From a virus: a stretch of 64,000 nucleotides of DNA. The DNA is taken from positions 124,001-188,000 of the IMG/VR virus record IMGVR_UViG_3300042868_005134, one strand, 5' to 3'. Positions 5,496-52,818 of this stretch are shown one piece after another. Each line of letters begins with the position of its first letter. Within the stretch, counting starts at the first letter, position 1. The position numbers and the translations under genes are program-made. The notes under the pieces are model-generated. The model was not told the DNA's origin and made no database searches. It was given only the letters and a program-made list of their open reading frames with translations.

Positions 5496-5873
5496 TTAAA
5501 CGCCGTACTTATTTCGTTTAGGTTTAGCAACTGTACTGATTTTGTTAACGCTATCTAATTCTAAACTGCGCATGTCTCCGTGATTTACATCATCGTAATC
5601 TGCGCCCACTGCTTTGGCGGCTTTTTTGAACATTTCGTTTTCAATTTCTGTATATGGGTGTACAGTTTTCCTTTTGCCATGCCAGCTTTTGGCATCAATG
5701 TCGGGTACAGTTTTGCCATCAGTAGCAGCCATGGCTTGGCCTAGTTTAAACGACACATAATCACTATTCATTTTTTCAGCATCGCCGTAAGTGCTTATAC
5801 CACGACTAGATTGACTGTGTCGCTTGGTAATTTTAGCCTGTTTAGCTTCTGAAATAATTTCTGTAACTTTCAT
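5496..5873 (-). CDS. Putative capsid-targeted internal protein (125 aa)
   Basis: I take the ATG at 5873, which overlaps the TGA of the gene before it (ATGA), rather than an in-frame ATG 12 bp upstream. The protein then begins MKVTEIISE-AKQAK. This resembles the T4 capsid-targeting sequence of internal proteins (MKTYQEFI-x-E), which gp21 cleaves after (L/I)xE; the predicted cut is after Glu9. The rest is hydrophilic and Lys-rich (AKITKRHSQSSRG ... KPKRNKYGV) with no domain I recognise. It shares its leader with the next gene upstream and with the 440-residue protein at 50604-51926. Packaging into the head is an inference from the N-terminus. Confidence 0.7.
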   Translation of the reverse strand: MKVTEIISEAKQAKITKRHSQSSRGISTYGDAEKMNSDYVSFKLGQAMAATDGKTVPDIDAKSWHGKRKTVHPYTEIENEMFKKAAKAVGADYDDVNHGDMRSLELDSVNKISTVAKPKRNKYGV

Positions 5874-6163
5874 TCGCAATTCCATTTACGCAAAGCAAGT
5901 GCCTTGCGAGTTGGTTCACCATTGGGCTTTTTCATTGGGCCGTCAACTCCGCCCATTCTAGCACAGAATGATTTACGGCGTTTAGCATCCTTACTGCCTG
6001 CTTTTAATTTACTAGGTTTAGTAGTTACTGCTGTTTGTAATTTGCTACCAGGATTTTCACGACGGTAGCTGGCAACGCCTTTGGCATTTAGGCCACCAGC
6101 TTTACTTTTACCTTCTTTTCTACGCCATGCGGCAGATTCTGAAATAATTTCACTAACTTTCAT
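5870..6163 (-). CDS. Putative capsid-targeted basic internal protein (97 aa)
   Basis: Begins MKVSEIISE-SAAWRRKEG, again a T4-like capsid-targeting leader with an IxSE site for the gp21 protease. The mature part would be strongly basic: many Lys/Arg, a conserved-looking CARMGGVDGPMKKPNG block and a C-terminal PTRKALALRKWNCE. Small proteins with this CARM...RKALALRKW ending occur in other T4-like phages, from memory and without known function. A basic protein packed with DNA is a plausible role. It starts 2 bp after the gp13 stop and overlaps the next gene by 4 bp, so it should be co-expressed late with neck protein gp13. Confidence 0.75.
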   Translation of the reverse strand: MKVSEIISESAAWRRKEGKSKAGGLNAKGVASYRRENPGSKLQTAVTTKPSKLKAGSKDAKRRKSFCARMGGVDGPMKKPNGEPTRKALALRKWNCE

Positions 6164-43043: not shown

Positions 43044-43670
43044 TTATTGGAGTCCGCTTATTAATCTTAATAAGCTCTCTTTGAGATATTTCTGCGCCTT
43101 AGGGTCGCCCTGCACTTCCTTCGCTATACGAAGGCTACTATAACCTCCCTTATTATTCATAAGGTGTTCATAGATTGGTGTTGGGTACGCTCCCGGAGCA
43201 CTTGGTTGAGCTACCACATCTACTGTGATAATCTCAAAATCTGACACTTCACCGGATCCGTCTTCTTTGACGTTACCGGATCCGCGACTGCTTACTCCTA
43301 ACTTAACTCCGCTTTCCAACATAGTTTTCACTAAGTTGCCCATTGGAGTCGGTAGGATTTTTAATTTTCCATAACCGTTTGGGCCATCCATCCACATATT
43401 TGTAATCATGTGGCTCACACGGTCAAGGTTAATTTTTAGGTCATCTGGATGATCCACTTCGCCGAGTACTGAGTATCCACCTTCAAGTTGATCGTTCAGG
43501 GTCTTGACAGCCCTGTCGATTTCATTAACAGGATAAACACGCTGATTTTGATTCCTAACGCCGCCTTGGATACAAATACCTTTCATATAAAGGTTCTTGC
43601 CTCCTTCGCCGTCGGATTCAACGACCATTTTTGCTTGGTCGAAACTCAGGTTTTCACGAAGATAATTCAT
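43044..43670 (-). CDS. 21: Prohead maturation protease gp21
   Basis: Serine protease that cuts capsid and core proteins after (L/I)xE. 208 residues, close to T4 gp21 (212). The catalytic candidates are His74 in GEVDHPDD and Ser127/128 in GVSSRGSG; Asp151 in VDVVAQPSAPGA lies in a conserved strand. RVYP (45-48) also fits the family. It lies between the acidic core protein and gp22, with short gaps (10 and 13 bp). Its likely substrates in this window are gp22, gp23, the core protein, and three proteins with MKVxxIxSE leaders. Confidence 0.92.
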   Translation of the reverse strand: MNYLRENLSFDQAKMVVESDGEGGKNLYMKGICIQGGVRNQNQRVYPVNEIDRAVKTLNDQLEGGYSVLGEVDHPDDLKINLDRVSHMITNMWMDGPNGYGKLKILPTPMGNLVKTMLESGVKLGVSSRGSGNVKEDGSGEVSDFEIITVDVVAQPSAPGAYPTPIYEHLMNNKGGYSSLRIAKEVQGDPKAQKYLKESLLRLISGLQ

Positions 43671-46652: not shown

Positions 46653-49502
46653 TTAACTATACATGTTCTTTGGATTTTTCTCGAGCGCCGTGATTTGTTT
46701 TCTTCCCAAATCATCGCTCTGTGAAAGTAGCTTGTTCATAGTTATATTTAACATATCTAAACCCTTTACTACGTCTTCTAGAGCAGCGGTCTTGCCGCCT
46801 CGCTGTGCTGGTTTATCGTCAGCTTGAGATTTGGCAGCTGGTGCCTTGGCAGCTTGTTCTTTCGCGTCTGCTTGGGCTTTGGCTTCTTCTGCAGGTTTAT
46901 TTACTGCAGCAGGCACACTGGCAGCATTGGCTTTCATTTGGGCTCCAAAGCCGGGCAAATTAATGGCATTCAAATCTATAGCAGGAGTGGCTGCTATGGG
47001 TGCTGAGTACTTGCCGGCACCCATAGAGGCTTCTGGTTCTTCTGCGCCAATAGCAGCCATGTTTAATAATGAAGTATCTTTTTGATACTTTTCTCTAGCT
47101 GCTTTTTCTGCTTCGGCACCTTGTTCGATACCAATTAATTTTAACGCTTCTTCTTTTTCTATTTCAGATAATCTGGCTTCTTGTCCTTGTAAAGTTACTG
47201 CTAGTTGTTCTGTAACAAGTTTTTTAGTCTCTTCAACTGATTCTTGTTTTTTACTGGTTTCCCATGTGATACCGTCAGCAATTTTCTTTTGTAGCTCTTC
47301 CTGTTTTTTTGAAAATTCTTCTTTTATCTTTATTGCTTCGTCGTCTGCCTTCATAACAGCTTGGACTTTGGAAAATTTTCTATCTTCAACAGCCATTCCT
47401 TCAATCAGAATGTTTTTTCTTGCGGCCATGTCTTCATTAAACTTTGATTTTAATTCTGACATTTCTTTTTCAGCACTCTTACTGTCATCACTTTGAACAC
47501 GTTTAGTAGTTGACTCGCCGCCAGTCATGGAACTGATTGATGTGCTAATAGTCTTAGACATTTCTGTCATATTGATATTAGGTTCTGTCTTAGCAGGCAT
47601 ACTGATAGCTTTGGCAATGCCAGCCATATCAACGGCAGGTGCTTTGGCTGGCATACTAATAGCTTTGGATATACTGCTCAAGTCAAATCCGTCCATGCCA
47701 CCTGTAGGATTTCCCCTTGGCGGAGCCATACCTTTCATTGATTCGTATGCTGCTTTAAATTTGTCTTCTTTAGTGTCCAAGTCTGGAGGAGGAAGTTTTC
47801 CAAGTATATTCTTAACACCACTCATGCCAGCAGCAGCAATAGTGTCCTTCATCTGTCCTTGGTTTAATACAAACTCAGGACCTTCTTCTGCTAAAGTTGA
47901 CAGTGTTGGTTGGCTAACATATCCGCCATCTGCATGTCGTGTTAAACCTGTAACCTTACCAGTAATATTTAGAGTGTCGGCTCCAATGTTTGATAAATTA
48001 CTCAGAGCTTTTGTAATTTCACCAACTACACCGCCACTTTCGTTTTCTTTTCTTGCTTCTGCTTCGTATTTGCCTTCGCCTGGCTTGGGCACAAACGGTT
48101 GTGGGTTTTGACCTTTCCTGGCGGCATCTTCCATATTGACTGCGGCATTCTTACCCGGACCTGCTAGATTGTTAGCAGTTTGTTCTCCAATTTCACCTAT
48201 ACGACGGGCGCCACCGGCAATGCTTTCGCCGGTCGCTTTATTCTTAACTTCCGATGCGGCAGCAACACCTGCTCCAAGATTTTGTCCAGCTATTTGTGTT
48301 GCTATAACTCCTTGAGTTGCTCCGCTAACACGTTCTCCGCCAGGTTTTAATCGACCTTCTTGACTTGCTATAATATCAGTTCTAATTTTGCTAAGGGCAG
48401 TAGCATAATCAGTTTGACTTTTTAATAAGTTTGTATTTCCTTTTACTACACTCATTACACTATCGTGTAATGCCATGTTGTCTTCTGTACTCTTCTTTAA
48501 AATTGTACCTACGCTGCCTGCAGCATCTCCCATGGCGGCCATTCGTAAAAGTGTTGGATCTCTTTGATTACGAGCGTTGGCTGCTTCTGCTTCCTTGTTG
48601 GCTGCTTCTGCTGCAACAATGTTACCTTTGGCCAAGTGGCCCATTTGCTCGCCAGTTTTCTGTGCGGCCTCGCCTAGTAATGCGTATTGAGTGGCAGCTT
48701 CTTCGCTAGTAACTGTTCCAGTGGCAAACATTTCTTTTGCCATTTGTCCCATACCGCGAGCTTCTGCTTGAGCAAATTGTTTTTGGAATCCTTCTCTTGC
48801 TGCCGCTTCTGCGGCGGCACCTTGTTCAATTCCAATTAATCTTAACTTTGCTTCAATTTGTCCGTCGGTGCTGCGTTTCTTAGCAGCTTCCATTTGTTCT
48901 TCTTTACTTTTGCCTGTGAGTTTGGCAATGGCATCCATCTCTTTAGCTAATGAAGCTGCAGCTTCTCTTGATTTTACACCTGCGGCACCTTCAATACCCA
49001 TAGTGTAACGTTGTGTACTGGCTTGTAACGCAAGAACTTCGTTAAGTTCTTTAGCATTGTATCCCATCTGCTGTAGTTCGTCGCCAGCGTTACTATCAAA
49101 GAAACTCTTGCTTAATTTGCCAAATGCTTCAGCACCGCGAGTGACACTGCCACCAAGGCCGGCCATTTGTTTTCCGTTATTAGCAATAACGTTAGCGAAA
49201 TCATTTAGGCTCAATCTACTGCCAGCGGCAGCAACATTCATGCCAATTAGGTCATTGCTAAAATTAGCGCCATGTTTGCTAAGTCCTTGGAACGTATCAG
49301 CACTTGACTTAGCAGCATGTAGGAAAGACTCTGCGCCATCTTTCAAGCCTTCTTTAACTTTACTTGTGTCAAACCCTTGATTGCCACCACCGCTTGGTGG
49401 CGCACCTCCGCCACCTACAGTTACAGGGCCGCGGCCACTAGATTTCAAAGCGTTTTCAAACGCTTGTTGCATCATTAACTGATCATTTCTATCTAAAGCC
49501 AT
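46653..49502 (-). CDS. Tape-measure-like tail protein (949 aa)
   Basis: A long, mostly helical protein with Ala/Gln/Lys-rich segments. At about residue 525 stands HADGGYVSQPTLSTLAEEGPEF, a motif of phage tape-measure proteins (GG..x.PTL...GExGPE). Two copies of LIGIEQGA-AE-AAREGFQK-type text occur at about 222 and 795. The C-terminal part is a charged coiled coil (residues about 680-790) and an Ala-rich tail. Tape-measure proteins set tail length and are ejected with DNA. T4 uses gp29, and I cannot show that this is its homologue. GGAAA and a late promoter precede it; it shares a divergent promoter region with gp26. Confidence 0.7.
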   Translation of the reverse strand: MALDRNDQLMMQQAFENALKSSGRGPVTVGGGGAPPSGGGNQGFDTSKVKEGLKDGAESFLHAAKSSADTFQGLSKHGANFSNDLIGMNVAAAGSRLSLNDFANVIANNGKQMAGLGGSVTRGAEAFGKLSKSFFDSNAGDELQQMGYNAKELNEVLALQASTQRYTMGIEGAAGVKSREAAASLAKEMDAIAKLTGKSKEEQMEAAKKRSTDGQIEAKLRLIGIEQGAAAEAAAREGFQKQFAQAEARGMGQMAKEMFATGTVTSEEAATQYALLGEAAQKTGEQMGHLAKGNIVAAEAANKEAEAANARNQRDPTLLRMAAMGDAAGSVGTILKKSTEDNMALHDSVMSVVKGNTNLLKSQTDYATALSKIRTDIIASQEGRLKPGGERVSGATQGVIATQIAGQNLGAGVAAASEVKNKATGESIAGGARRIGEIGEQTANNLAGPGKNAAVNMEDAARKGQNPQPFVPKPGEGKYEAEARKENESGGVVGEITKALSNLSNIGADTLNITGKVTGLTRHADGGYVSQPTLSTLAEEGPEFVLNQGQMKDTIAAAGMSGVKNILGKLPPPDLDTKEDKFKAAYESMKGMAPPRGNPTGGMDGFDLSSISKAISMPAKAPAVDMAGIAKAISMPAKTEPNINMTEMSKTISTSISSMTGGESTTKRVQSDDSKSAEKEMSELKSKFNEDMAARKNILIEGMAVEDRKFSKVQAVMKADDEAIKIKEEFSKKQEELQKKIADGITWETSKKQESVEETKKLVTEQLAVTLQGQEARLSEIEKEEALKLIGIEQGAEAEKAAREKYQKDTSLLNMAAIGAEEPEASMGAGKYSAPIAATPAIDLNAINLPGFGAQMKANAASVPAAVNKPAEEAKAQADAKEQAAKAPAAKSQADDKPAQRGGKTAALEDVVKGLDMLNITMNKLLSQSDDLGRKQITALEKNPKNMYS

Positions 49503-49568: not shown

Positions 49569-50384
49569 ATGAATCCATTACAAAAATACTTTAGACAACC
49601 CAAGTTGTTTATCAGTTTGCCCAGCAAAGGGCTGTACTACGAGGAAGGTACTCTACAAGGAGATGTTAGTAAAGTGCCAATTTTTGCCATGACTGGCATG
49701 GATGAACTCATAATGAAAACACCTGACAGCTTGTTTAACGGTGAAGCCACAGTAAAATTAATAGAAAGTTGTTGTCCATATATTACAGACGCACATAAAG
49801 TGCCCAGTATTGATCTAGATGTATTATTAGTTTCCATTAGAATGGCAACATACGGTAAAGAAATGAGTATTGGACATACCTGTACTAACTGTGGTACTGA
49901 AAACGACTTTGCCATTGATTTAACTAGTGTCATGGATCACTATGCTGATAAGAATTTTGACAATAGACTAGTAGTTGACGAAGAAATTACCATTAACTTT
50001 AAGCCGTTAAGCTACGAAGAAATGACAATAGTAAACTTGGAAAATTTTAAATTACAAAAAATGCTTGGTCAGATTGCTGATATAGATATCGACCGTAGGC
50101 AACAAGTCATGGATGATATCTATGCTAAACTAGCTGAAATACAAGTACATGTATTTTTAACTGCCATTGAGTCAGTTCAAATTCCCAATGTATTAGTAAC
50201 TGAGAAAGATCATATTCGAGAGTGGTTGTCTAACACTAACCGAGAACATTATACTCTTATCAAGAGTAAACTTGAAAAGAATAAAGAACTTTGGGAGATG
50301 CCAAAACAAAAAGTCATTTGCGGCAATTGTGGCACTGAAAACGCTATTGAAGTTGTAATGGACCAATCAAGTTTTTTCGTATAA
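49569..50384 (+). CDS. 26: Baseplate hub protein gp26
   Basis: 271 residues (T4 gp26 208). The opening NPLQKYFRQPKLFISLPSKG and the segment ESCCPYITDAHKVPSIDLDVLLVSIRMATYG are typical of the T4 baseplate hub assembly family. Two CxxC pairs, HTCTNCGTEN at about residue 104 and VICGNCGTEN at about 251, probably bind one zinc ion. In T4, gp26 is needed for hub assembly. It is on the plus strand in a small island between minus-strand tape-measure and hydrophobic genes, with its own late promoter. Confidence 0.85.
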   Translation: MNPLQKYFRQPKLFISLPSKGLYYEEGTLQGDVSKVPIFAMTGMDELIMKTPDSLFNGEATVKLIESCCPYITDAHKVPSIDLDVLLVSIRMATYGKEMSIGHTCTNCGTENDFAIDLTSVMDHYADKNFDNRLVVDEEITINFKPLSYEEMTIVNLENFKLQKMLGQIADIDIDRRQQVMDDIYAKLAEIQVHVFLTAIESVQIPNVLVTEKDHIREWLSNTNREHYTLIKSKLEKNKELWEMPKQKVICGNCGTENAIEVVMDQSSFFV

Positions 50385-50395
50385 AACTGTTACCC

Positions 50396-50611
50396 TTGTC
50401 TAGATCTGACATCGAAGAGTTGGTTAACAGTTTAGAATTAGATACAAAACAAATAAAAGATGAAATCTTTCGCATAAGTTGGTACATGCGAGGCGGAGTA
50501 AGCAGTCAGGATCTAATGCACGTTTACGGCTACGAGGATAGGCAGATCATGAATGAGATTATAAAAGAAAATATTGAAATTACCAAAAATAGCCGTATGG
50601 CTATTATTTAA
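50396..50611 (+). CDS. Small protein following gp26 (71 aa)
   Basis: Only a TTG start (50396) is available in this frame after the upstream stop, 11 bp past the gp26 stop. The protein contains the block IFRISWYMRGGVSSQDLMHVYG (residues about 24-45), which I recall from small proteins next to gp26 in other T4-like phages, and a final NEIIKENIEITKNS helix. Hub assembly partner or tail assembly chaperone is plausible but not shown. The 3' end overlaps the convergent 440-residue gene by 8 bp. Start uncertain since no good ribosome site is seen. Confidence 0.6.
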   Translation: MSRSDIEELVNSLELDTKQIKDEIFRISWYMRGGVSSQDLMHVYGYEDRQIMNEIIKENIEITKNSRMAII

Positions 50612-51926
50612 TTTCGTCGTAACCATAGACGCCGTATTTTTTCTTAGGGTCGTCCTGTATTTTTAAAGTAGGATCAGGAATGCCGGCAACACCAACCCTA
50701 GCTTTTATGTCATTAAGTTTGTCGTTGCCTACTAGACGATATCCATTTTCATCACTAATTTGTTGATTATTAATGTAAAGTTTCTTGCCAACCCATTGAA
50801 TATTCATACCATTTGTAGCTTGTCTTGCGCCATCGGCAGCATCACCAGTTGGTGGTTTTACTGCGGTCTTACCAGGTAGTGGACCATCTAGTAGTCCAGC
50901 TTCCTGTAATCCTTTTTCTAGTAAATCAATAGCGGCTGCTGTCAATGCCCCTGTTGGTTCAGTAATTGCTCTTACCAAAGAACTATTTAAAAATTCTTTA
51001 CCAGCACTGGTACGCATGAATATCAAGAAAGCTGGGGCCGCAGGCCCCATTTCAATTAATTTAGAAATACCTTTTGCCACGTTAGTAGGCAAGCTAACAA
51101 ACATACCTAAATATTTTGTTGTTGTAATGCTGGCGCCGCCCAGTGTAGCTGCACCTGTGGCAATACCTTTAAACATGCCTGACATTGCGCCAAAGAATTT
51201 GCTGGCCACTCCAGTATTTAAGGCAACACCAATGGCCAATTCTCCTAACAGTTTCTTTCTTAACTGTTGATACTTGTTATAGGCTTCTTGCTCTGACATT
51301 TTTCCAAAAGGAGAATCTTTGCCAGCTTTATAATCTTGGTAGTCTTCCTCTAACACGGACAAATCCACGTAGTATTCTCTTACAAATTCTAAACCCACAA
51401 CAGTTTTTATCACAGTCATGGCTACATCGGGTATAAATCCCATCCTTGCCTGGGCTGCTGCCTTCATGGAAGCATTGGCACCACGCATTTTTAAGTAGGC
51501 TTTAATTTTTTCAAACCCTACTTTACTGTCAGGGTCAAATTTTCTCAAGTTTATTTTTTCTGTTTTAGCTACTGTTTTTTCTAATTGGGCAAGACGCTCA
51601 GTAACTTTCTTTTTTAACCACTTGCCGCCTTTACTTTGCCATGACTTAGGAATAAGTTTAAGTATTCCTGCTTTACCCAGCTTGGCAAAGCCAGGTGTAA
51701 ACAATAGTACAGCATCTATGAATAGATCATTCCATTCGTCGTCAGTAATTGATTCAGGATCTTGGTTGTATTTGCCAATGAATTTGTATATTTCGTAGGC
51801 ACTCCAAGCACTCATGCCTACAGAGATTGCGGTAATTATTGTACCTATTCCAATACCTGCTATTACAAGAGGTACGGCTTCATTCAATGATTCAGTTCTT
51901 TCAGAGACTATTTGATGGACTTTCAT
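50604..51926 (-). CDS. Hydrophobic protein with capsid-targeting leader (440 aa)
   Basis: Begins MKVHQIVSE-RTESLNE, the same kind of leader as the two small genes at 5496-6163 and similar to T4 internal proteins; IVSE and SLNE are both possible gp21 sites (after Glu9 and Glu16). The rest is unlike a soluble internal protein. Hydrophobic stretches occur near residues 18-48 (PLVIAGIGIGTIITAISVG), 72-95, 160-180, 225-285 (Gly/Ala rich) and 290-310. The C-terminal 80 residues are hydrophilic (GMNIQWVGKKLYINNQQISD ... KKKYGVYGYDEIK). I know no family for it. A late promoter motif lies 6 bp before the ATG. It may be a head-borne, DNA-co-injected protein that enters the host membrane; speculative. 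Confidence 0.75.
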   Translation of the reverse strand: MKVHQIVSERTESLNEAVPLVIAGIGIGTIITAISVGMSAWSAYEIYKFIGKYNQDPESITDDEWNDLFIDAVLLFTPGFAKLGKAGILKLIPKSWQSKGGKWLKKKVTERLAQLEKTVAKTEKINLRKFDPDSKVGFEKIKAYLKMRGANASMKAAAQARMGFIPDVAMTVIKTVVGLEFVREYYVDLSVLEEDYQDYKAGKDSPFGKMSEQEAYNKYQQLRKKLLGELAIGVALNTGVASKFFGAMSGMFKGIATGAATLGGASITTTKYLGMFVSLPTNVAKGISKLIEMGPAAPAFLIFMRTSAGKEFLNSSLVRAITEPTGALTAAAIDLLEKGLQEAGLLDGPLPGKTAVKPPTGDAADGARQATNGMNIQWVGKKLYINNQQISDENGYRLVGNDKLNDIKARVGVAGIPDPTLKIQDDPKKKYGVYGYDEIK

Positions 51927-51932
51927 AATATA

Positions 51933-51940
51933 TATTTATT
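51933..51940 (-). promoter_or_regulatory. Late promoter motif AATAAATA before the 440-residue gene
   Basis: AATAAATA on the minus strand, followed by TATATT and the ATG at 51926. No Shine-Dalgarno sequence. Another candidate for leaderless late expression; it fits late synthesis of an internal head protein. Confidence 0.55.
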
Positions 51941-52373
51941 TAAAGTTGAACTACGTTCAACTGTTCTTCGCTCACGCTCGAACTATTTTCTTTATTATTA
52001 ATGCGAAGCATTTAAGTATTATCTAGATTGTTCAGTCACACTTTGCCCTTGCGGGCAAAGAAAATTGAACATTATCTGAGTTGCACAATCCACTTAGCGT
52101 TACAGCAGTTACAGAGGCGGTCATCCGGTACCTCGAGCTGTGTCTTTATTATGACGGCGGTCCACTAACATACGCTAACATGCTAGCAAACGTGGGTATT
52201 TCTCCCTCTTTTTGCCTTTGAAATCCTTGAAACAATCAAACCGCGGCAGCTTTGCGATCCTGGTCCTGTAAAGGATACTGATTGAGTGCTCTTAACGGCA
52301 AGAGTCTACGGATCCCTGCGACACTGGGTCCAGGTTTCTTCTGTTCGCCACCCGAGATTAGCCGGTGGAAGCC
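51941..52373. other. Gene-free stretch with elevated GC and serial hairpins
   Basis: I see no convincing gene on either strand. The left part holds perfect small inverted repeats: AGTTGAAC-TAC-GTTCAACT (51944-51962) and CTTTGCCC-TTGC-GGGCAAAG (52041-52060, GCAA loop on the minus strand), plus a shorter AATGC/GCATT at about 52000-52013. The right part (52081-52373) is about 49% G+C by count, clearly above the surrounding AT-rich sequence, with CCACC/GGTGG near 52349-52369 and CTCTT/AAGAG near 52290-52305. Open frames of 30-50 codons exist on both strands but are expected by chance. A structured RNA, an imported fragment or a decayed gene are all possible. Confidence 0.4.
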
Positions 52374-52811
52374 TTAACCGTTTAGTTGTTTGCCTTTGAT
52401 GTGTGAGCCGTGTACACGAACAGCGATTTGTCCGTTGTAGTAGTCATCTGATTCTAATACCCGCCTGGAGAATTGTTCTCTTGCCTCGATATAACTACAT
52501 TCAGCCTTTGATGTGCAGTAATAAATTATTTCTCTATGGAAATTTTCTCTGCCTTGTTGTTCTACGTCTTTGTTTAGTTGGTCGTTTGAGCCATAGTATT
52601 CACGCCAGTCAGAATCAATTTTGGATTTAATCCGCTTTTTCTTCTTGGTGCCGTTCTTGAGTTTTACTGTTTTATAAGTTGTTTTAGAAAATTTTGATAA
52701 TTTCTTGCCTATATATTTTCGACCAGTGATGTTATTAGTGATACAATAGACAAATCCAATACATACTTCAGGTAAGGTTTCGACTATTGTGTTTTGATAA
52801 TACCATGACAT
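52374..52811 (-). CDS. GIY-YIG-like nuclease domain protein (145 aa)
   Basis: ATG at 52811 preferred over the TTG one codon before. GFVYCITNNITGRKYIGKK at residues 19-37 fits a GIY-YIG signature with FVY in place of GIY and YIG at 33-35. Later DWREYYGSNDQLNKDVEQQG and YIEAREQFSRRVLESDDYYNGQI are recalled from a family of small proteins common in T4-like phages. Glu in YIEAREQ could be the catalytic glutamate, which is inference. The family is usually annotated as putative endonuclease; a role in DNA repair, recombination or homing is possible. It is the last gene of the recombination operon, 7 bp past the small gene before it. Confidence 0.65.
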   Translation of the reverse strand: MSWYYQNTIVETLPEVCIGFVYCITNNITGRKYIGKKLSKFSKTTYKTVKLKNGTKKKKRIKSKIDSDWREYYGSNDQLNKDVEQQGRENFHREIIYYCTSKAECSYIEAREQFSRRVLESDDYYNGQIAVRVHGSHIKGKQLNG

Positions 52812-52818
52812 CAACTAG

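What the first reader, a model, noticed from the sequence alone, without database searches (positions are those of the whole stretch)
50604..51926. A hydrophobic 440-residue protein with the same capsid-targeting leader
Its start MKVHQIVSE-RTESLNE has two possible gp21 sites, matching the leaders at 5.5-6.2 kb. But the body has several hydrophobic and Gly/Ala-rich stretches, unlike known T4 internal proteins. A membrane-active protein carried in the head and delivered with DNA would be an unusual arrangement in T4-like phages, reminiscent of ejected internal proteins of podoviruses. No family recognised.
Basis: partly seen in the sequence, partly recalled or inferred. Interest (0 to 1): 0.7.

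Follow-up and report, generated by a model that had tools for sequence, protein, structure and literature searches.

The report
Capsid-targeted membrane-like phage protein
A giant phage carries a fast-changing, partly membrane-like protein behind a short tag that probably sends it into the virus head, so that it can be delivered into the host cell together with the DNA.

Summary
The ORF (440 aa, minus strand) is real. Its leader MKVHQIVSE-RTESLNE resembles the T4 IPII/IPIII capsid-targeting sequence: 0 of 181 other N-termini score as high. LNE16 fits the published gp21 motif L/I-x-E; VSE9 does not strictly. Two small basic ORFs in the window carry the same leader.

Synteny exposed a family. 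Of 63 metagenomic T4-like loci, 55 have an ORF in the same convergent slot (41 distinct); the leader opens 35 of the 41. The leader and a promoter-like ATAAATA persist while bodies drift to 20-30% identity or are replaced; neighbouring gp46 keeps mostly 72-85%.

The target's most hydrophobic stretch (28 uncharged residues) begins exactly after LNE16, so processing would expose an N-terminal membrane helix. Membrane character is otherwise modest: 23 of 38 members pass a hydrophobic test against 16 of 174 other ORFs. No known fold or family matched.

Best reading: a head-packaged, protease-matured ejection protein acting at the host membrane, under fast host-driven evolution. SPN3US gp47 is an architectural precedent without homology. 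New variant of a known kind; packaging, cleavage and ejection are inferred.

The parts
50604..51926 (-). the 440-aa ORF (precursor)
   Evidence: homologues; dN/dS 0.145
51879..51926 (-). leader, residues 1-16 MKVHQIVSERTESLNE: CTS-like residues 1-9 and candidate cleavage sites after E9 (VSE, non-canonical) and E16 (LNE, canonical)
   Evidence: T4 CTS comparison; motif statistics; codon analysis; motif from PMC9026906
51795..51878 (-). 28-residue uncharged hydrophobic segment, residues 17-44, starting directly after E16; would be the mature N-terminus
50892..51446 (-). conserved helical core, residues 161-345 (motifs YYVDLxxLEExY and FMRTSAGKEFL, invariant G326)
   Evidence: alignment; hhalign between clusters
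50604..50831 (-). small C-terminal alpha/beta domain, residues 366-440 (YINNxxISDxxGY...GxPDPT), aligned in 13 family members
   Evidence: alignment; block pLDDT 89-96 for residues 381-440; single copy in the genome
51933..51939 (-). late-promoter-like ATAAATA ending 6 nt before the ATG
   Evidence: spacing statistics
43044..43670 (-). head maturation protease (gp21-type), the presumed processing enzyme
   Evidence: PHROG 207, E 4e-58
5870..6163 (-). 97-aa basic DUF6321 protein with the same leader (MKVSEIISE)
5496..5873 (-). 125-aa basic protein with the same leader (MKVTEIISE)
49569..50384 (+). baseplate hub (gp26-like), convergent neighbour used to find the syntenic family
   Evidence: PHROG 150, E 2.8e-23

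Best explanation
The ORF encodes a precursor that the N-terminal leader (CTS) draws into the scaffold core of the prohead; the phage's gp21-type protease then removes the leader (most likely after LNE16), exposing an N-terminal hydrophobic helix followed by a helical, basic body and a small C-terminal domain. The mature protein stays in the head and is ejected with the DNA. In the cell it acts at the inner membrane, most likely in host takeover, exclusion or counter-defence rather than as a fixed structural conduit, which would explain why its body evolves much faster than its neighbours. Shown here: gene, leader, motif, family, conservation pattern, promoter-like element. Inferred: packaging, cleavage, ejection, membrane insertion, target.
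For: Leader scores 19.5 against the T4 IPIII CTS (MKTYQEFIAE, read from NC_000866); 0 of 181 other N-termini reach that; family mean 19.7 vs 4.6. Leader opens 35 of 41 distinct syntenic ORFs against 1 of 252 other ORFs, and that one is itself a relocated member. Conservation is at protein level: E9 in 33 of 37, Ser8 coded by TCN 15 and AGY 6 times. L/I-x-E in the first 25 residues in 30 of 38 (38 of 38 if V/M/F allowed) against 12.9% of later windows. gp21-type protease in the same head gene cluster. ATAAATA upstream in 33 of 41. K+R exceed D+E in 40 of 41. The target's strongest hydrophobic segment starts at residue 17, directly after LNE16; 23 of 38 members against 16 of 174 other ORFs have a charge-free hydrophobic 18-mer. 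Bodies diverge to 20-30% while gp46 keeps mostly 72-85%. SPN3US gp47 shows the same architecture and evolutionary behaviour.
Against: No virion or cleavage data. 15 of 38 members have no charge-free hydrophobic 18-mer, and the 54%-identical relative in L025 lacks the whole N-terminal hydrophobic module. Cultured relatives with the same gene order (Atu_ph07, Phosso, XaC1, GAP32, BF, CBB) show no leader ORF in the slot, so the protein is accessory in the wider group. dN/dS between the closest pair indicates purifying, not diversifying, selection overall (0.145; most relaxed segment 0.462).
Confidence: 0.55

Rival explanations
1. It is packaged by the CTS and matured, but is a soluble or DNA-associated internal head protein (like T4 IPIII or Alt); the hydrophobic stretches are buried helices of a globular or oligomeric head component.
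For: Net positive charge in 40 of 41; the other leader proteins are small and basic; 15 of 38 members lack a clear hydrophobic segment and L025 lacks the N-terminal one.
Against: 28 uncharged residues with KD up to 2.24 directly at the predicted mature N-terminus; L024 and L039 have closely similar stretches after LNE, and L031, L063, L066 and L072 have less strict ones after an LxE motif (sequences, sites); family enrichment 23/38 vs 16/174.
Confidence: 0.25
2. It forms or lines a trans-envelope path for DNA entry (an ejection protein in the T7/P22 sense).
For: Helical core with several borderline hydrophobic helices; one member (L053) carries a segment weakly like a phage endolysin family (phrog_2649, E 0.007).
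Against: Myoviruses deliver DNA through a contractile tube (established knowledge); the slot is empty of leader ORFs in cultured relatives with the same virion gene order; bodies are unrelated in some members, unexpected for a conserved conduit.
Confidence: 0.1
3. It is an ordinary late membrane protein made in the infected cell (holin-like, superinfection exclusion) and the N-terminal similarity to a CTS is coincidental or reflects constraints on a leaderless mRNA.
For: Promoter-like ATAAATA 5-7 nt before the ATG in 23 of 38 suggests leaderless mRNA.
Against: The leader is conserved at amino-acid level with varied codons, including both Ser codon families; small basic proteins without such hydrophobic bodies carry it too; it persists when the body changes.
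Confidence: 0.1

Closest known systems
T4 internal proteins IPI/IPII/IPIII with capsid-targeting sequence
   Same: Short N-terminal leader ending in a gp21-type motif; bodies diverge while the CTS is kept (PMC3012670 and PMC9026906, passages and section 10 read); the same phage also encodes small basic leader proteins.
   Different: 440 aa instead of 95-193 aa, strong N-terminal hydrophobic segment, helical membrane-like core, no family match of the body.
SPN3US gp47 / phiKZ gp86 (giant myophage head ejection proteins)
   Same: Propeptide removed by the prohead protease, predicted TM helix at the mature N-terminus, highly diverged genes at an equivalent position, inferred ejection (PMC5694885 passages; gp47 sequence checked).
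   Different: No detectable homology to gp47 (hhalign probability 0.4%); propeptide about 111 residues instead of 9-16; found in phiKZ-like, not T4-like, giant phages.
P1 DarB and the Dar system
   Same: N-terminal capsid-targeting signal loading a defence-related protein into a myovirus head (PMC9024508 passages).
   Different: DarB is a 250-kDa protein; no sequence relation was tested; its first 30 residues suffice for targeting.
T7 gp14/gp15/gp16 podovirus ejection proteins
   Same: Head-carried proteins, some with predicted TM helices, that act in the host envelope (PMC8954989 passages).
   Different: Internal core proteins of short-tailed phages, no protease-removed CTS (recalled); no family match for the target.

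Membership tests
T4-type CTS-targeted internal head proteins | N-terminal 10-19-residue leader resembling the IPII/IPIII CTS | tested here: met
   score 19.5, 0 of 181 other N-termini as high (2 of 181 if the Met is left out)
T4-type CTS-targeted internal head proteins | gp21 cleavage motif L/I-x-E at the end of the leader | tested here: met
   LNE16 fits; VSE9 does not (motif)
T4-type CTS-targeted internal head proteins | gp21-type prohead protease in the same phage | tested here: met
   window 43044-43670, PHROG 207 E 4e-58
T4-type CTS-targeted internal head proteins | late expression | tested here: inconclusive
   ATAAATA 6 nt before the ATG; 33 of 41 family members have one within 45 nt; no transcript data
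T4-type CTS-targeted internal head proteins | processed protein present in the mature head and ejected | not testable with these tools
   needs virion proteomics
T4-type CTS-targeted internal head proteins | small basic soluble body (typical of the T4 IPs, not required by the CTS) | tested here: not met
   440 aa, K+R 58 vs D+E 47, strong hydrophobic segment 17-44
SPN3US gp47 / phiKZ gp86 ejection proteins | sequence homology (tested with gp47) | tested here: not met
   hhalign of the 27-sequence alignment A4 against gp47: probability 0.4%; hmmsearch --max scores negative
SPN3US gp47 / phiKZ gp86 ejection proteins | TM-like helix directly after the prohead-protease site | tested here: met
   segment 17-44 after LNE16; in gp47 the hydrophobic peak starts at residue 120, published site ALE-111
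SPN3US gp47 / phiKZ gp86 ejection proteins | essential, functions after virion assembly | not testable with these tools
   needs a mutant
podovirus ejection proteins (T7 gp14/15/16-like) | sequence or fold relation | tested here: inconclusive
   no PHROG, Pfam, NCBIfam, PDB-sequence or significant Foldseek match, but fold models are poor

The most novel reading that the evidence does not exclude
This locus is a dedicated cargo slot of a large group of uncultured T4-like giant phages: a fixed late promoter and capsid-targeting leader feed a rapidly diverging, sometimes wholly replaced, membrane-active protein that is carried in the head and placed in the host inner membrane at the moment of DNA entry, for example to disarm membrane-based anti-phage defences, an envelope-directed counterpart of the T4 IP system.
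Probability: 0.25. Interest if true: 0.8.

Novelty: new variant of a known kind. Interest (0 to 1): 0.55.

Why it matters
If true, T4-like giant phages use the capsid-targeting system not only for small soluble anti-restriction proteins but to deliver hydrophobic proteins to the host membrane before any phage gene is expressed. The leader gives a simple sequence handle for listing head-carried cargo in uncultured phages, and its fast-changing bodies are candidates for counter-defence screening. It also links a giant T4-like group with the gp47-type ejection proteins of phiKZ-like giants by architecture alone.

Tried and rejected
Homology to known families: PHROGs, Pfam, NCBIfam and the PDB gave only chance-level matches for the target; tblastn in 50,697 phage records gave none even at E 10; genome contigs gave none. 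Among relatives, one member (L066) matched a 'membrane protein' PHROG at E 7e-6 and one unidentified member a 'virion structural protein' PHROG at E 6e-4; neither was followed further. Structure: the full-length model (mean pLDDT 57.9) and the core model headed by relative L034 (53.2) were too weak to use; Foldseek against BFVD and PDB had no match at E 0.001 or better, best VIA-align Z 5.7 over 73 residues against unrelated helical proteins. I did not run a structure search with the second model. A peptidase reading of the L053 variant (residues about 290-430, M15-like by eye, recalled motif) was not confirmed: Pfam no, PDB no, phrog_2649 endolysin only at E 0.007. A weak hit of L014's protein to a Halocynthia phage transglycosylase (E 5) is treated as chance. 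The classical T4 late box TATAAATA occurs once in the window against 5.45 expected, so I used the looser ATAAATA, chosen after seeing the sequence upstream of the target. The idea that the leader is conserved for nucleotide reasons was tested and rejected. Direct homology with SPN3US gp47 was tested and rejected. Rows dropped: for statistics on 38 members I left out L083 (unrelated, no leader) and L064 and L070 (cut by the contig end); for the codon table also L061 (start two codons upstream of its leader). The leader regular expression was written after looking at the family.

Slips: alignment A3 contained a 3-base reference for L053 by mistake and was not used for any claim; in A4 the L039 row lacks its first Met. 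In the family script 7 of the 55 ORFs (4 distinct sequences) were trimmed to an internal start to show the leader; the control used the same trimming.

Full report
Observation. The given coordinates are an ATG-to-stop ORF of 440 aa on the minus strand. The window is part of a 383,411-base virus record with T4-type head genes in order: portal, two further genes, gp21-type protease, scaffold-position protein, major head protein; gp55- and baseplate-type genes; and gp46/gp47-type genes, named here by synteny with annotated phages. The target lies on the minus strand, its 3' end overlapping by 8 nt a 71-aa gene that follows the gp26-like baseplate hub. Its composition is not hydrophobic overall (GRAVY -0.13), but residues 17-44 form one strong uncharged segment whose best 18-mer (KD 2.24) is the highest among the segments printed for window ORFs of 200 aa or more.

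Family by synteny. Direct searches found only near-identical copies, relatives at 79-84% and one at 54% and nothing in cultured phages. Searching instead for the neighbouring gp26-like gene gave 63 metagenomic loci. In 55 of 63 an ORF occupies the same convergent slot (41 distinct sequences); of the other 8, three end within 340 nt of gp26, two (L073, L074) have the protein moved to the other side of gp26, and three (L076-L078) have none. BLAST clusters: 21 sequences including the target, a second cluster of 8, and small ones. hhalign joins clusters 1 and 2 (probability 98.3%, E 2e-14 over the core); links to L044/L053 and L075 are short; L050-type shares essentially only the leader; L081, L082 and L079 have other bodies; L083 is unrelated.

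Leader. 35 of 41 distinct syntenic ORFs begin M[KR]xx[EQDK][ILVF][ILVT]x[EQP]; with identical trimming only 1 of 252 other ORFs in these loci does, and it is the relocated family member of L073/L074. Against the CTS of T4 IPII/IPIII, MKTYQEFIAE, read from NC_000866, the target scores 19.5; 0 of 181 other N-termini reach this (2 of 181 when the initial Met is left out), and 24 of 38 family members exceed the best other. Conservation is at protein level: Ser8 uses both codon families (15 TCN, 6 AGY), Ile6 all three codons, Glu9 is kept in 33 of 37. L/I-x-E, the published gp21 motif (PMC9026906, passages), occurs within the first 25 residues of 30 of 38; 38 of 38 if V, M or F is allowed; 12.9% of later 25-residue windows contain it. 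In the target, LNE16 fits and VSE9 does not strictly. In the genome the leader pattern hits three other ORFs, of 83, 97 and 125 aa, all with excess of K+R; in five related records it hits 10 times with 0 in the reversed control, including orthologues of the 97- and 125-aa proteins.

Expression. ATAAATA lies within 45 nt upstream in 33 of 41. In the window it occurs 12 times, and by my count 7 of these lie on-strand within 60 nt upstream of ORF starts, which are virion-type genes, neighbours of the portal, or the target (list). In 23 of 38 members it ends only 5-7 nt before the ATG and only 4 of 38 show a Shine-Dalgarno-like tetramer, against 17 of 40 window ORFs of at least 95 aa; if it is a T4-type late promoter (recalled geometry), these mRNAs would be nearly leaderless.

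Body. Common features are a variable linker, a helical core with motifs around YYVDLxxLEExY and FMRTSAGKEFL with invariant G326, and in 13 aligned members a C-terminal domain that is confident in the model. A charge-free hydrophobic 18-mer occurs in 23 of 38 members against 16 of 174 other ORFs of at least 200 aa. In the target and L039 (printed) and, by sequence, in L024, L031, L063, L066 and L072, a hydrophobic stretch starts right after an LxE motif. L025, 54% identical elsewhere, has lost this module. Fold models are weak and match nothing.

Evolution. Relative to the target, gp46 stays mostly at 72-85% identity (67% in L079 and L081, 52% in L083) and the GIY-YIG ORF at 53-89%, while the leader protein falls to 20-30%, about the floor of the global alignment, in most members. 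Between two closely related members dN/dS is 0.145 against 0.028 for gp26, with the region 241-290 most relaxed (0.462). Cultured jumbo phages with the same order (GAP32, BF, CBB, XaC1, Atu_ph07, Phosso; 6 of 69 hit records examined) have no leader ORF in the slot.

Comparison with what is known. T4 internal proteins are a diverse set with only the CTS conserved (PMC3012670, passages), and CTS residues 4, 7, 8 and 10 matter for targeting and processing (PMC9026906 section 10). This family behaves the same way but carries a membrane-like body. I checked gp47 itself: its hydrophobic peak (KD 2.49) starts at residue 120, just after the published site at 111, but there is no homology to this family. 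The listing of papers holding both 'capsid targeting sequence' and 'jumbo phage' has 2 entries, both on SPN3US; searches listed none that, by title and abstract start, describes this family.

Verdict. The leader and the implied packaging route are well supported by sequence; membrane action is the likeliest but not the only reading (about 0.55); the exact target is unknown. It is a new variant of a known kind: CTS-directed head cargo with a membrane-like, rapidly changing body.

Noticed in passing
window 52230-52373 (-): Rfam RF01718 'Polynucleobacter-1 RNA' (80.7 bits) directly follows the GIY-YIG-type ORF (52374-52814). The same RNA is found in 12 of 13 related phage loci scanned (all but L079), downstream of that ORF where I compared coordinates, so this orphan RNA family looks like a conserved element of T4-like giant phages. 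No paper in the held library contains the phrase 'Polynucleobacter-1 RNA'.
   Followed up: partly
window 51933-51939 and upstream of the family genes: ATAAATA ends 5-7 nt before the ATG in 23 of 38 family members and few have a Shine-Dalgarno-like tetramer: possibly leaderless late mRNAs.
   Followed up: partly
L009 1-1527 (own genome about 69.9-71.4 kb): An 83-aa basic leader ORF (MKVRDIITE) is followed by a protein starting MRFNEFKIVLKED with GDSL-lipase, peptidoglycan-binding and cell-wall-hydrolase domains; its N-terminus also looks CTS-like, so it may be another head-carried enzyme.
   Followed up: partly
window 5496-6163 (-): Two small basic leader proteins, one DUF6321, sit next to a dNMP kinase (T4 gene 1 type, PHROG 139); in T4 ipI also lies close to gene 1.
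   Followed up: partly
L053 7033-8640 (-): The longest family member (535 aa) has an extra segment weakly similar to phage endolysins (phrog_2649, E 0.007), perhaps a peptidoglycan hydrolase.
   Followed up: partly
L073 and L074 4926-5981 (-): Here the leader protein (MKVNEIICE...) has moved to the other side of gp26 while the usual slot is empty.
   Followed up: no
window 46653-49502 (-): 949-aa protein between gp26 and the portal, no PHROG or Pfam match; it occupies the place of the 'virion structural protein' of GAP32, BF and CBB.
   Followed up: no
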